Of a stretch of 63,254 nucleotides of DNA, positions 49,057 through 52,494 are shown piece by piece. Made by a program: the position numbers and the translations under genes. The first letter of the stretch is position 1; every line of letters begins with the position of its first letter. Source of the DNA: a bacterium (GTDB taxonomy: Bacteria; Planctomycetota; Planctomycetia; Planctomycetales; Planctomycetaceae); assembly GCA_016124895.1 (NCBI GenBank), contig WGMU01000028.1, forward strand, positions 1 through 63,254, written 5' to 3'. The notes under the pieces were generated by a model, which was given only the letters and a program-made list of their open reading frames with translations, ran no database searches and was not told the origin of the DNA.

Positions 49057-52000
49057 TCAGCGAAGGATGCGGCCTGCGTAGCCAACGACTCGGGTCTTGT
49101 CGCCGGTTACGTCGGCTGACGTCGAGTAGCCGATGTCCTCGACTATCACTTCGCCCCCCAGCTCTTTCAGAGTCTTGAGCACAATTACAGCCGGCAGCAT
49201 TCCGCACATCGAGATGTGCTGCGAGCGGCAGACGTTGAAGAGGGCGTCCTCGTCGAGTTTGTCGAGTTCCGCCAGAGCGAGTGCGTCGAGGCGGCGGTTT
49301 TCGGCATCGGTCGCGTAGTGATTCATGTCGGACGAGATCAGCAGCAGCGGCGGTTCGTCGAGGTCGCGGATCACTTCTGCGAGCTGCTTCGCGAACTGCT
49401 CGCACTTCTCCAGCGTCGCTCCGCCGACGGCGACGCCGACGACTTTCGTCTCGGGTGACAACCGGGCGATGATCGGCAGTTCGACTTCGATGCCATGTTC
49501 AGCCTGATGCGCTGCCGCGTCCGGTTCCAGCCCGTCGATCTTCTCGACAAGCTTCATCGTCAGCTCGTAGTCGGACGAAACGTCGCGGCCGGGAAGTTTC
49601 CAGACGTGATGCGGAGCGACGGCCCAGTCCGTTCCGTTGCCGGTATGTTTGGGGCCAATCGCGATGATGCGTTTCGGCAGCTCGACGCGTTTGAGCACGT
49701 CAGCCGCGAGCCTGCCGGAGAACATCCAGCCGGCGTGTGGCACCATGACAGCAACGGCTTTCTGCGGAGTCACGTCACCGTCGAGCATCCGGTCAAGCAT
49801 GGCGTCCATCTCGGCGGCGGCGCCTGGATAAAAGCGCCCGGCGACTGCTGGCGGACGATCCGACGATCCCCGTGAGGGCTGCGCTACCGAGCTGAACGTC
49901 ACACGCGGCCGCGTCGACTGAAATCCGAGACTGTAAATACTGGCATAAACCGGGTCGGTGACGCGACACAACTCGGCACATTCGGCAACCAGTTCTTCTG
50001 CCGTCTTCGCCTGATCGAACACCCAGACCGTCTTGGATCGTTCAGTCATCAGAACGGCCCGCTCGCTGGTGTCGATGCCGTCGAGACTGGACTCGGCGGC
50101 CGACCCGTGCATCGCCGGATCGAACGCGATCGCGAGATCTAGTTCAAAGTTGCCGTTCAGAAAGCCGCGGCGTCGCAGCGTCGCAGCGAGGTTCTCGCAC
50201 ATAGAAAACGCGGACGACTGCAGCGGCATCGGCTCACGCAGTGACATCCGGGCGATGTTGATTTCCTGCCCGCCCGGCACGGTCACGATCATCGACAGAC
50301 CGTTGATCGATTCGTCCGGGACCGTCCCGCAGTAATACATCGGCGTCGCGCCACGCACGATCGCCTGGACGTTCTGCTGGCAGACGCGCCGGAGTTCCTC
50401 GACCTGAGCCGGCTCGTACAGCGGCCGGGTATGCTCAAACCATTCAACGTCGGCGTCGATCAGGTTGCCCTTGATACAGTTCCCCTCGAAGCGGAACAGC
50501 GTCGTTGACGGATCCTTCCACGCGGTCGGAGCGAAGCCGGCTTTGATACAGACCTGATCGAGAAACTGCTCAGCGCCCCAGTCATTGTCGGTCGCCACGC
50601 CAGGCAGCAGCAGCCCACGCTGGTTGCCGCGAATGATCTGCAGCCCGTGCGAACCGATCGTAATTTCCCCGATCCGATCCTCACCCTGAGCATGAACCAG
50701 TTCCGGCGAAAACAGCAGCCAGACTTCCATGTCGAGGTGCGGAATCTCGATCGTCGAGATGCGTGGAAACCGCGGGTCGGCGGTCGCCGTTCGACGCGAG
50801 ACGTCCCGCAGCGTTTCTTCGAGCGGCATTGGGGCACCGAATGAGCCCATGCAGGAACGCAGTCGGCCGTCACGTTTCAGACTGACAAAGATGCCGGCGA
50901 CGACAGCGTTCGCGACACCAAGCCCTTCGAGGTCTGGCATCCTGGCCGGTCGTTCTTCGGTGGCGGCTCGAACCAGTTCGGCGGCGGCTTTGCAGATCGC
51001 GCTTCGCTGTTCCTTCGTGAGCGGCAGCCGTGTCGGTGCCTCGCGAAATTGTCGAGGCTGTGTCTGAAGTGCTGTCGCGGATTGTGTTGCCTGAGTCATT
51101 GTTGCCTCCTGACTGAGATACGTCATCCGTTGACCTGTCTGCTGCTGTTGCACCTGCTGCTGCGTCGGCTGACTGAGCTGCGTCAGCCACTGCAGAGCGG
51201 ACTCATCGAGACTGACGGGTGGCGAGCTTCCGCCAGTCGGCGAACCTGGCTGGCGTTGCTCGCGCGTCGGAGCTTCGGCCTGCTGCATCGCTTCGATCTG
51301 CGTTTGCGGAACGCCAGCGACTTCCGGATCACGCAGTTGAACGAGCCGATCGTCGGACACCGGAATCTCGTCGCGTTTCGCGGCACTCAGTCCCTCGATA
51401 TGAAACTGCCGCATGTCGACCGGCTGCCGCTTACGGCCCCAGTTGCCGGGACGATCTTCAAAGTGGCCGGGAACCTCCGTGCCGCAGTGCGTGCATACGT
51501 TGCCTTGCAGAGCGTACGTGCCGAGCGCGTACCAGTTCCGTTCGATGACCTGCCTGCCGCAGCCGTGGCAGTAGGTGCTCTGCCGTTCGACATCGTTGAC
51601 ATTGCCGACGTAGACATACCGGATGCCCGCCTGCAATGCGATCTCGCGGGCTGCGATCAGCGTCTCGTGCGGCGTGTGCGGCACGTCCATCATCTTGAAG
51701 TCGGGATGGAACGCGCTGAAGTGGAGAGGAACGTCCGGGCCGACGGCGTCGAGTATCCATTCGGCCATCTGCTTCACTTCACCGAGGCCGTCGTTCTTCT
51801 GCGGGATGATCAGGTTCGTAATCTCGACCCAGACATCGGTTTCGTGTTTCAGCCAGCGAAGCGTGTCGAGCACTGGTCGGAGGTGCGAATACGTCAGCTT
51901 GAAATAGAACTCTTCGGTGAACGCTTTCAGGTCGACATTCGCCGCATCCATGAATTCGTAGAAGTCACTGCGGGCTTCCGGTGTGATATAGCCTGCGGTG

Positions 52001-52494
52001 ACAGCCACCGATTTGATGCCCTCGGCCCGGCACGCTTTCGCCGTGTCAATCGCGTACTCGGCCCAGATTGTCGGGTCGTTGTAGGTGTAGGCGACGCTAT
52101 GGCAATCGAGCGACTTCGCGGCGAGGGCAATCTCTTCCGGAAAGGCGCGATGACTGAGTCGTTCGACTTCGCGCGCCTTCGAGATGTCCCAGTTCTGGCA
52201 AAACTTGCAGCCGAGATTGCAACCGGCTGTCCCAAACGAAAGGACGCTGGTGCCGGGATAGAAGTGGTTCAGCGGCTTCTTCTCGATCGGGTCGATGCAG
52301 AAGCCGGTACTGCGGCCGTAAGTCGTCAGAAACATCTCGCCGCCGAGATTCTGACGCACGAAGCAGAAGCCGCGATCACCGTCTTTCAGCGAGCATTCAC
52401 GCGGGCACAGATCGCAGACGACGCGCTCGCCGTCGCGGTGCCACCACTTGCCAGGCAGCAGTCCCTCAGCCAGATTGGCCGCAACATTCATCAT
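49057..52494 (-). CDS. AmmeMemoRadiSam triple fusion (radical SAM + AMMECR1 + Memo)
   Basis: About 1,145 residues (numbering here from the TTG at 52497, one codon before the preferred ATG). Residues 1-365 are the AmrS-type radical SAM enzyme: N-terminal Cys set (28, 31, 35, 45), cluster CNLGCKFC (93-100) and a zinc-ribbon-like CHGC/CTHC region (310-338). A Gln-rich linker spans about 438-485. AMMECR1 covers about 490-680 (LRSCMGSFGAPMPLEETL). An unassigned part follows (about 685-870). Memo covers about 880-1145: VPHAGW (His921), AEHGIEVELP (His1001), SSDMNHY (His1060). Separate proteins A, B and radical SAM usually occur as neighbours; their joint reaction is not established. All motif residues are intact. 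Confidence 0.9.
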   Translation of the reverse strand: MMNVAANLAEGLLPGKWWHRDGERVVCDLCPRECSLKDGDRGFCFVRQNLGGEMFLTTYGRSTGFCIDPIEKKPLNHFYPGTSVLSFGTAGCNLGCKFCQNWDISKAREVERLSHRAFPEEIALAAKSLDCHSVAYTYNDPTIWAEYAIDTAKACRAEGIKSVAVTAGYITPEARSDFYEFMDAANVDLKAFTEEFYFKLTYSHLRPVLDTLRWLKHETDVWVEITNLIIPQKNDGLGEVKQMAEWILDAVGPDVPLHFSAFHPDFKMMDVPHTPHETLIAAREIALQAGIRYVYVGNVNDVERQSTYCHGCGRQVIERNWYALGTYALQGNVCTHCGTEVPGHFEDRPGNWGRKRQPVDMRQFHIEGLSAAKRDEIPVSDDRLVQLRDPEVAGVPQTQIEAMQQAEAPTREQRQPGSPTGGSSPPVSLDESALQWLTQLSQPTQQQVQQQQTGQRMTYLSQEATMTQATQSATALQTQPRQFREAPTRLPLTKEQRSAICKAAAELVRAATEERPARMPDLEGLGVANAVVAGIFVSLKRDGRLRSCMGSFGAPMPLEETLRDVSRRTATADPRFPRISTIEIPHLDMEVWLLFSPELVHAQGEDRIGEITIGSHGLQIIRGNQRGLLLPGVATDNDWGAEQFLDQVCIKAGFAPTAWKDPSTTLFRFEGNCIKGNLIDADVEWFEHTRPLYEPAQVEELRRVCQQNVQAIVRGATPMYYCGTVPDESINGLSMIVTVPGGQEINIARMSLREPMPLQSSAFSMCENLAATLRRRGFLNGNFELDLAIAFDPAMHGSAAESSLDGIDTSERAVLMTERSKTVWVFDQAKTAEELVAECAELCRVTDPVYASIYSLGFQSTRPRVTFSSVAQPSRGSSDRPPAVAGRFYPGAAAEMDAMLDRMLDGDVTPQKAVAVMVPHAGWMFSGRLAADVLKRVELPKRIIAIGPKHTGNGTDWAVAPHHVWKLPGRDVSSDYELTMKLVEKIDGLEPDAAAHQAEHGIEVELPIIARLSPETKVVGVAVGGATLEKCEQFAKQLAEVIRDLDEPPLLLISSDMNHYATDAENRRLDALALAELDKLDEDALFNVCRSQHISMCGMLPAVIVLKTLKELGGEVIVEDIGYSTSADVTGDKTRVVGYAGRILR

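What the first reader, a model, noticed from the sequence alone, without database searches (positions are those of the whole stretch)
49057..52494. All three AmmeMemoRadiSam parts in a single polypeptide
Radical SAM, AMMECR1 and Memo domains occur in one chain with all key residues visible. The three are usually separate neighbouring genes. A full fusion implies a 1:1:1 complex and possibly passing of an intermediate between active sites. The reaction of the system is unknown, so the fusion is a good single-protein target for biochemistry.
Basis: partly seen in the sequence, partly recalled or inferred. Interest (0 to 1): 0.72.

Follow-up and report, generated by a model that had tools for sequence, protein, structure and literature searches.

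The report
Four-domain AmmeMemoRadiSam fusion protein
In a branch of planctomycete bacteria, three proteins of unknown function that usually come from separate genes, two of them with human relatives linked to disease, are made as one long protein, which also hides a fourth, decayed copy of one of the parts.

Summary
One intact ORF (window 49057-52494, minus strand, ATG start, 1145 aa; an upstream TTG at 52497 would add one residue) carries the AmmeMemoRadiSam radical SAM, AMMECR1 and Memo domains, each over its NCBIfam cut-off, with the metal-binding residues present. It is no assembly artefact: I found 37 distinct loci with the triple fusion, nine of them in single-contig genomes, and dN/dS is low in every domain.

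(1) A 192-aa region between AMMECR1 and Memo, unmatched in Pfam, is a cryptic second AMMECR1 fold that has lost the LRxCxG motif; profile comparison, an AlphaFold model and three solved AMMECR1 structures agree. It is found in 35 of 39 fused ORFs and, diverged, probably in three more. (2) The radical SAM domain hangs on a probably disordered linker of very variable length (26-150 aa), while the other domains follow each other closely.

So the fusion supports a 1:1:1 system, but not a fixed channel between active sites. The reaction remains unknown. Most likely this is a tethered, self-contained version of the known system: a new variant of a known kind.

The parts
49057..52494 (-). Whole gene: radical SAM - linker - AMMECR1 - pseudo-AMMECR1 - Memo; ATG start, 1145 aa (TTG at 52497 gives 1146)
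51412..52449 (-). AmmeMemoRadiSam radical SAM domain, residues 17-362 (TIGR04337)
52198..52221 (-). CX3CX2C motif, C93/C97/C100, radical SAM [4Fe-4S] ligands
   Evidence: C in 48 of 48 clade rows and 103 of 103 canonical rows at all three positions; role from established knowledge of the family
52363..52416 (-). N-terminal four-Cys set C28, C31, C35, C45: possibly a second metal site
   Evidence: conserved in all 48 clade rows and in 102 or 103 of 103 canonical rows; metal is inference
51484..51570 (-). C-terminal CxxC...CxxC (C310, C313, C335, C338), ribbon-like metal site
   Evidence: conserved in all rows; Pfam zinc-ribbon matches are below their cut-offs
51016..51393 (-). Gln-rich linker, residues 369-494, probably disordered, length variable among relatives
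   Evidence: pLDDT mostly 25-35; 24 Gln of 126; 26-150 aa across 39 ORFs; dN/dS 0.21
50446..51015 (-). AMMECR1 domain, residues 495-684
50845..50862 (-). LRSCMG motif, residues 546-551 (canonical LRGCIG)
49870..50445 (-). Pseudo-AMMECR1 domain (M), residues 685-876: AMMECR1 fold without the LRxCxG motif
49060..49869 (-). Memo domain, residues 877-1146
49735..49737 (-). H921, equivalent of MEMO1 iron ligand H49
   Evidence: H in 75 of 75
49645..49647 (-). H951, equivalent of MEMO1 iron ligand H81
   Evidence: H in 75 of 75
49204..49206 (-). C1098, equivalent of MEMO1 iron ligand C244
   Evidence: C in 73 of 75; the other two are gaps in truncated loci
49072..49092 (-). C-terminal RVVGYAG strand, residues 1136-1142, with VGY invariant in the Memo rows compared

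Best explanation
This is a self-contained, single-chain form of the AmmeMemoRadiSam system. Shown: the chain joins a radical SAM domain, on a long variable linker, to AMMECR1, a degenerate second AMMECR1 fold and Memo, which follow each other with short joints; the known metal and motif residues are kept in the radical SAM, first AMMECR1 and Memo domains and lost in the second AMMECR1. Inferred: the radical SAM domain makes a 5'-deoxyadenosyl radical that acts on a substrate held at the AMMECR1 site; the Memo site (two His and one Cys holding iron) carries out the partner redox step; and the pseudo-AMMECR1 is a non-catalytic partner that props or lids the first copy, as pseudo-enzyme halves do in other duplicated enzymes (recalled). 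The arm keeps the parts together at 1:1:1 without a fixed tunnel. The substrate is not known.
For: All three domains over cut-off in one frame. 39 fetched triple-fused ORFs, which are 36 distinct loci besides the window. All rows labelled fused fall in one clade (48 rows, 38 labelled fused, SH-aLRT 98). Low dN/dS in every domain against the nearest relative. One match to each family in the window's own genome; of 22 fused genomes searched, 20 have one Memo and 21 one AMMECR1. M is AMMECR1-like: profile match E 1.7e-6 over 166 columns, score 45.6 against 17.3 for the best of 30 column-shuffled controls; AlphaFold pLDDT 92.7; the only three PDB chains with Foldseek E under 0.001 are AMMECR1 structures, VIA Z 13.3, 12.1, 10.3 against 4.9 for the next. 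In the fetched loci M is never seen without A. Long variable rS-A linker (26-150 aa) and short A-M (2-16) and M-B (up to 10) joints. Memo-AMMECR1 fusions in the opposite order occur in other lineages (L070, L072, L082, L092, L113, L116), which ties A and B together independently.
Against: No substrate, product or activity is known here. The full-length model is weak, above all over the first 120 residues of the radical SAM part (mean pLDDT 77.2, pTM 0.55), so domain packing is not tested and low confidence in the linker is only suggestive. Gene context names no pathway: around the fused gene the widest recurring neighbours are 8 loci of one genus, then one family in 6 loci at scattered places (4 of them upstream on the same strand) and a small upstream ORF in 3 loci; around canonical loci none exceeds 6 of 84. 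Ten rows of the clade are not fused, and well-supported branches force at least three gains or losses of the fusion, so fusion is not essential for this lineage's enzyme. L101, L037 and L172 do without M. One fused genome, G006, has a second radical SAM ORF over cut-off, and G393 and G039 have extra copies of Memo.
Confidence: 0.55

Rival explanations
1. Direct channelling: the intermediate passes from the radical SAM site through AMMECR1 to Memo inside one rigid assembly.
For: The motif and metal residues of all three domains are kept in one chain; A, M and B are joined by short linkers.
Against: The radical SAM domain is on a linker that varies from 26 to 150 aa and is predicted with low confidence. 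In L036 and L104 it is a separate ORF while A-M-B stays joined, and in G223 the radical SAM gene lies on another contig from A and B.
Confidence: 0.15
2. Specialised enzyme: the fused clade has moved to a different substrate from the separate-gene systems.
For: The AMMECR1 motif is LR[SA]C in 41 of 52 A-domain rows of fused or M-bearing ORFs, against LRGC in 39 of 40 separate A ORFs (one shows no motif) and 11 of 12 A rows in other A-plus-B ORFs (duplicate fetches not removed). Two radical SAM columns differ between clade and canonical rows (W145 in 46 of 48 against F in 100 of 103; N228 in 43 of 48 against T in 94 of 103). M is an added domain.
Against: The SAM-cluster cysteines and the Memo metal ligands are the same; the changes could be drift; no substrate is known for either form.
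Confidence: 0.2
3. Cis-activase: the radical SAM domain modifies its own chain, for example by making a glycyl radical at the Memo C-terminal RVVGYAG.
For: The closest solved radical SAM relative by sequence is pyruvate formate-lyase activase, 3c8f, and many of the weaker NCBIfam matches are glycyl-radical activases. G1139 and Y1140 are kept in 73 of 73 Memo rows with letters there, while human MEMO1 has Ser at that Gly. That activase recognises RVxGY motifs (recalled).
Against: R1136 is kept in only 55 of 73 rows with letters there. The motif lies at the start of a predicted beta-strand, whereas known glycyl radicals sit in a loop of a barrel fold that Memo lacks (recalled). A chance match is the simpler reading.
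Confidence: 0.04
4. Assembly join or frameshift artefact.
For: The window's genome is a draft in 195 contigs. One relative, G349, does show a frame change between AMMECR1 and Memo (L165).
Against: 37 distinct loci with the same order, nine of them in single-contig genomes; dN/dS far below 1 in every domain.
Confidence: 0.01

Closest known systems
AmmeMemoRadiSam system (TIGR04337, TIGR04335, TIGR04336; amrS, amrA, amrB)
   Same: All three protein families, with their metal-binding residues
   Different: One polypeptide in the order rSAM-A-M-B, with an extra degenerate AMMECR1 fold and a long linker; AMMECR1 motif LRSCMG instead of LRGCIG
Memo-AMMECR1 (B-A) two-domain fusions of alphaproteobacteria and some planctomycetes (L070, L072, L082, L092, L113, L116)
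   Same: Memo and AMMECR1 in one chain
   Different: Opposite order, no M domain, radical SAM in a separate ORF
Human MEMO1 (7kq8, 3bcz)
   Same: Same family; metal ligands H49, H81, C244 all have equivalents
   Different: Stand-alone; Ser where the bacterial Memo rows have the invariant Gly of VGY
AMMECR1 structures PH0010 (1vaj), MM0484 (1zq7), ST0229 (1wsc)
   Same: Domain A by sequence, domain M by fold
   Different: M shares about 10-11% identity and lacks the LRxCxG motif
Pyruvate formate-lyase activase (3c8f)
   Same: Nearest solved relative of the radical SAM domain by sequence
   Different: Lacks the N-terminal four-Cys and C-terminal ribbon of TIGR04337 (recalled); only residues 81-250 match

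Membership tests
AmmeMemoRadiSam system | Radical SAM enzyme over TIGR04337 cut-off | tested here: met
   590.9 bits, cut-off 220
AmmeMemoRadiSam system | AMMECR1-type protein over TIGR04335 cut-off | tested here: met
   118.9 bits, cut-off 99
AmmeMemoRadiSam system | Memo-type protein over TIGR04336 cut-off | tested here: met
   248.6 bits, cut-off 26
AmmeMemoRadiSam system | CX3CX2C cluster ligands | tested here: met
   C93, C97, C100 conserved
AmmeMemoRadiSam system | SAM cleavage or other activity | not testable with these tools
   needs purified protein
Memo, 2-His-1-Cys metal site | Equivalents of H49, H81, C244 | tested here: met
   H921, H951, C1098; iron binding itself not tested
AMMECR1 fold (domain M) | Same fold as solved AMMECR1 proteins | tested here: met
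   Foldseek E 7.4e-6 to 8.8e-6; VIA Z 13.3 / rmsd 3.5 / 167 aligned, 12.1 / 4.5 / 169, 10.3 / 4.7 / 169; profile E 1.7e-6
Pfam AMMECR1 PF01871 (domain M) | Matches the family model | tested here: not met
   PF01871 is not among the 12 families listed for 23 M sequences at E up to 10
Pfam AMMECR1 PF01871 (domain M) | LRxCxG motif | tested here: not met
   In the profile alignment R is replaced by N and C by A; 3 of 22 conserved A positions are kept (alignment uncertain at 13% identity)
Glycyl-radical enzyme (Memo C-terminus) | RVxGY loop with strict Arg (feature recalled) | tested here: not met
   Arg in 55 of 73 rows with letters there; start of a predicted strand

The most novel reading that the evidence does not exclude
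A four-domain machine in which a radical SAM domain on a swinging disordered arm serves a rigid AMMECR1/pseudo-AMMECR1/Memo block. The hidden pseudo-AMMECR1, made by an old internal duplication, forms a heterodimer-like pair with the active copy and controls access to it, so that the working unit of AMMECR1 is a pair of folds, which would also bear on the human disease protein.
Probability: 0.3. Interest if true: 0.65.

Novelty: new variant of a known kind. Interest (0 to 1): 0.5.

Why it matters
MEMO1 and AMMECR1 are conserved human proteins tied to cancer cell motility and to a developmental syndrome, and their basic reaction is unknown. MEMO1 binds iron, yet its authors report no dioxygenase activity (PMC11081632, passages read). 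In bacteria the two travel with a radical SAM enzyme. A single chain holding all parts at fixed 1:1:1, present in single-contig genomes and without a widely shared gene neighbourhood in the flanks I saw, suggests that these domains may be enough by themselves and offers one protein to purify. The hidden second AMMECR1 fold is a feature that the Pfam, NCBIfam and PDB sequence searches did not show, and it warns that constructs must include it.

Tried and rejected
Artefact: rejected (37 distinct loci, dN/dS). Fixed channel: weakened by the linker. Gene context as a clue to substrate: around fused genes (34 loci, with flanks from under 1 kb to 6 kb, plus the window) the largest real cluster is 8 loci of one genus (the two loci named Gimesia and six genomes of g55). 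Beyond it, one family recurs in 6 loci (L023, L024, L026, L034, L036, L101) at varied distances, four times upstream on the same strand; one in 3 loci at varied places (L023, L026, L033); and a small same-strand ORF lies just upstream in L034, L038 and L158; none was searched further. Around canonical loci the best clusters reach 6 of 84 loci (a phosphoribosyltransferase-like and a hydrolase-like ORF; names recalled from the sequences, not searched). Glycyl radical in Memo: followed and rated improbable.

Pfam search of M and of the linker gave only sub-threshold matches; a PDB profile search of M gave only weak matches to designed proteins, E 0.06 or more, so M was not visible to these sequence searches and needed profile-profile and fold comparison. 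Divergent middle regions of L103, L028 and L159: not found by the M HMM; each alone gives no convincing match (best E 0.005), but as a three-row profile they match M at E 6.6e-6 and A only at 0.005, so I call them probable M.

In-frame stops reported in weak radical SAM paralogues: in the three loci that I fetched (L167-L169; two of them reported with a stop, one without) the homology runs to the end of the ORF, so the stop is most simply the end of the gene.

Literature: nine searches, judged from titles and starts of abstracts and, from only part of the hits, listed no paper that announces the triple fusion; this covers only the held library. Passages read in PMC7159879, PMC7694686, PMC11081632, PMC6393860, PMC5502304, PMC9062700 and PMC9861516. 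Burroughs et al. 2019 (J Biol Chem), the main comparative study of Memo, is cited in papers I saw but is not held; it may already list such fusions. Its abstract is recalled only.
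Full report
WHAT IS THERE. The gene is on the minus strand, stop at 49057-49059, ATG at 52494 preceded by an in-frame TTG at 52497. Residue numbers here count from the TTG (1146 aa). NCBIfam places TIGR04337 at 17-362, TIGR04335 at 504-673 and TIGR04336 at 881-1144, all over their curated cut-offs; Pfam gives Radical_SAM, AMMECR1 and Memo. Base composition is even across the gene (GC 0.59-0.63 in 500-base steps). Residues 369-494 are a Gln-rich linker (24 Gln of 126) with predicted confidence mostly near 30.

IS IT REAL. By profile search 17 of L021-L039 carry radical SAM, AMMECR1 and Memo in one ORF; L036 and L037 are split. Over the loci fetched up to there are 39 such ORFs outside the window (ten short first fetches of loci, the window's own among them, were left out). 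Three of these are second fetches of the same contigs (L031=L108, L033=L102, L025=L149, judged by equal contig lengths), so with the window 37 distinct loci; two of them (L030, L110) run off the contig at the 5' end. In an even sample of 392 genomes of the phylum, 192 have a TIGR04337 match over cut-off. By my count of the listing 65 genomes have one of 490 bits or more, of which 15 have an open frame of 1000 aa or more. All 15 (14 fetched and the window) show rSAM-A-B in one ORF, and eight of them are single-contig genomes (G102, G121, G219, G269, G312, G318, G378, G382); G039 makes nine. In one search (59 relatives), 37 genomes are of the window's own family and 14 of these have a match over cut-off. 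Nine of the 14 carry the fusion (two cut by contig ends: G013 shows radical SAM-AMMECR1 only, G006 lacks its 5' part and has a second, unfused radical SAM ORF), and five have a radical SAM ORF without the other domains in it. dN/dS between the window and its same-genus relative L105 is 0.054 (radical SAM), 0.21 (linker), 0.064 (A), 0.047 (M), 0.058 (Memo). Against three more distant relatives synonymous sites are near saturation, so those ratios (0.06-0.21 in domains, up to 0.62 in the linker) are rough.

THE HIDDEN FOURTH DOMAIN. Between AMMECR1 and Memo lie 192 residues (685-876) that Pfam does not name. A profile of 24 such regions against a profile of the fused AMMECR1 domains gives probability 89.9, E 1.7e-6 (for a single comparison), score 45.6, over 166 columns, end to end; 30 column-shuffled controls reach at most 17.3, and the Memo and radical SAM profiles 15.7 and 19.5. 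With another column rule it is 79.8 and 1.5e-5. AlphaFold on the region alone with 23 rows gives mean pLDDT 92.7. Its only Foldseek matches under E 0.001 among solved structures are 1zq7 (two chains) and 1vaj, TM about 0.55-0.59 by model length. VIA-align gives 1vaj Z 13.3 (rmsd 3.5, 167 aligned), 1zq7 Z 12.1 (4.5, 169) and 1wsc Z 10.3 (4.7, 169), with the next row at 4.9. The AMMECR1 profile of the fused proteins finds exactly these three proteins. On the profile alignment M keeps 3 of 22 conserved AMMECR1 positions; the Arg and Cys of LRxCxG become Asn and Ala. I read M as a degenerate second AMMECR1 fold. It was found in 44 ORFs, counting duplicate and truncated fetches, never without A, and in 9 of 294 phylum genomes, one match each and always in this gene: eight in frames over 1000 aa and G045 in its 705-aa A-M-B ORF (the search scored at most 11 candidates a genome, so rare divergent forms could be missed). 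L103, L028 and L159 probably carry a diverged form; L101, L037 and L172 have A next to Memo without it.

ACTIVE SITES. Radical SAM: C93, C97, C100, the N-terminal set C28, C31, C35, C45 and the C-terminal set C310, C313, C335, C338 are kept in 48 of 48 rows of the clade and in 102 or 103 of 103 canonical rows (five remote rows, counted apart, have them too). Memo: H921, H951, C1098 align with MEMO1 H49, H81, C244, which hold iron in 7KQ8 (PMC11081632, passages read; alignment), and are kept in 73-75 of 75 rows, the rest being gaps (duplicate loci not removed). AMMECR1: the motif is LRSCMG here; in 52 A rows of fused or M-bearing ORFs 41 have Ser or Ala where 39 of 40 separate A ORFs have Gly, the fortieth showing no motif; 11 of 12 A rows in other A-plus-B ORFs also have Gly (duplicates not removed). 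LRGCIG is the conserved six-residue motif in which the human G177D mutation lies (PMC5502304, passages read).

EVOLUTION. In a tree of 156 radical SAM domains all 38 rows labelled fused (the window, 35 further triple fusions, and L007 and L165, where only radical SAM-AMMECR1 is joined) lie in one 48-row clade (SH-aLRT 98). Ten rows of it are not fused; the label needs six changes on this tree, of which well-supported branches force at least three, so there were losses or repeated gains (quick method, many open forks). L104 and L036 have a separate radical SAM ORF beside an A-M-B ORF, and in G223 (L178) radical SAM lies on one contig and AMMECR1 and Memo together on another. Thus the linker looks like a place where the gene splits or joins. 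Memo-AMMECR1 fusions in the opposite order occur elsewhere.

COPY NUMBER. The window's genome has one match to each of the three families. Of 27 genomes searched with Memo, 23 have one match, three have two (G045, G393, G039) and one has none (G013, whose gene is cut by the contig end); with AMMECR1 25 have one and two have two (G045, G393). By my count 22 of the 27 carry the triple fusion; of these 20 have one Memo and 21 one AMMECR1 match.

MECHANISM. Shown: architecture, residues, selection, linker length. Inferred: the radical SAM step, the Memo redox step, and the partner role of M. The variable arm argues for tethering, not a fixed tunnel. Context gives no pathway. Confidence 0.55 in this reading as a whole, most of which rests on the architecture.

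KNOWN OR NEW. The system is known and named in NCBIfam. Five papers in the library name it, once each; I read the passages in two of them, which only list its genes, and one on related conflict systems. I found no description of the triple fusion or of M in nine searches, judged from listings, but the key comparative paper is not held. I rate it a new variant of a known kind.

Noticed in passing
L165 (G349) 3390-3560, minus strand: In this single-contig genome the radical SAM-AMMECR1 frame ends just after AMMECR1 and the Memo frame overlaps it, while its genus-mate L159 has one ORF: a frame change, real split or sequencing error.
   Followed up: partly
G241, G220, G313, G270 and others: These Planctomycetota genomes each have five matches to the AmmeMemoRadiSam radical SAM model, the best at about 380-390 bits: a remote paralogue group, without AMMECR1 or Memo in the three short stretches that I fetched from other genomes with such matches (L167-L169).
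   Followed up: partly
AMMECR1 domains of the fused clade: The position after the Cys of the LRGCIG motif is also Cys in many fused forms (LRSCCG, LRACCG, LRGCCG), giving a vicinal Cys pair in 35 of 52 rows (duplicates not removed); the window itself has Met there.
   Followed up: no
window 52636-55422, minus strand: Upstream gene: an ORF with a CxxCH motif near its N-terminus, WD40-like repeats and a long coiled-coil-like C-terminal part (domain names recalled, not searched).
   Followed up: no
window 46556-48064, minus strand: Downstream gene looks like a sigma-54-type response regulator (domain names recalled from the translation).
   Followed up: no
L040, L041, L044, L095: Phycisphaeraceae and other planctomycete members of the fused clade's radical SAM with no AMMECR1 or Memo in the fetched flanks; in the clade member G223 both exist on another contig.
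   Followed up: partly
L034 5155-5922, L038, L158: A small same-strand ORF lies within about 100 bases upstream of the fused gene in three lineages, a possible operon partner.
   Followed up: no
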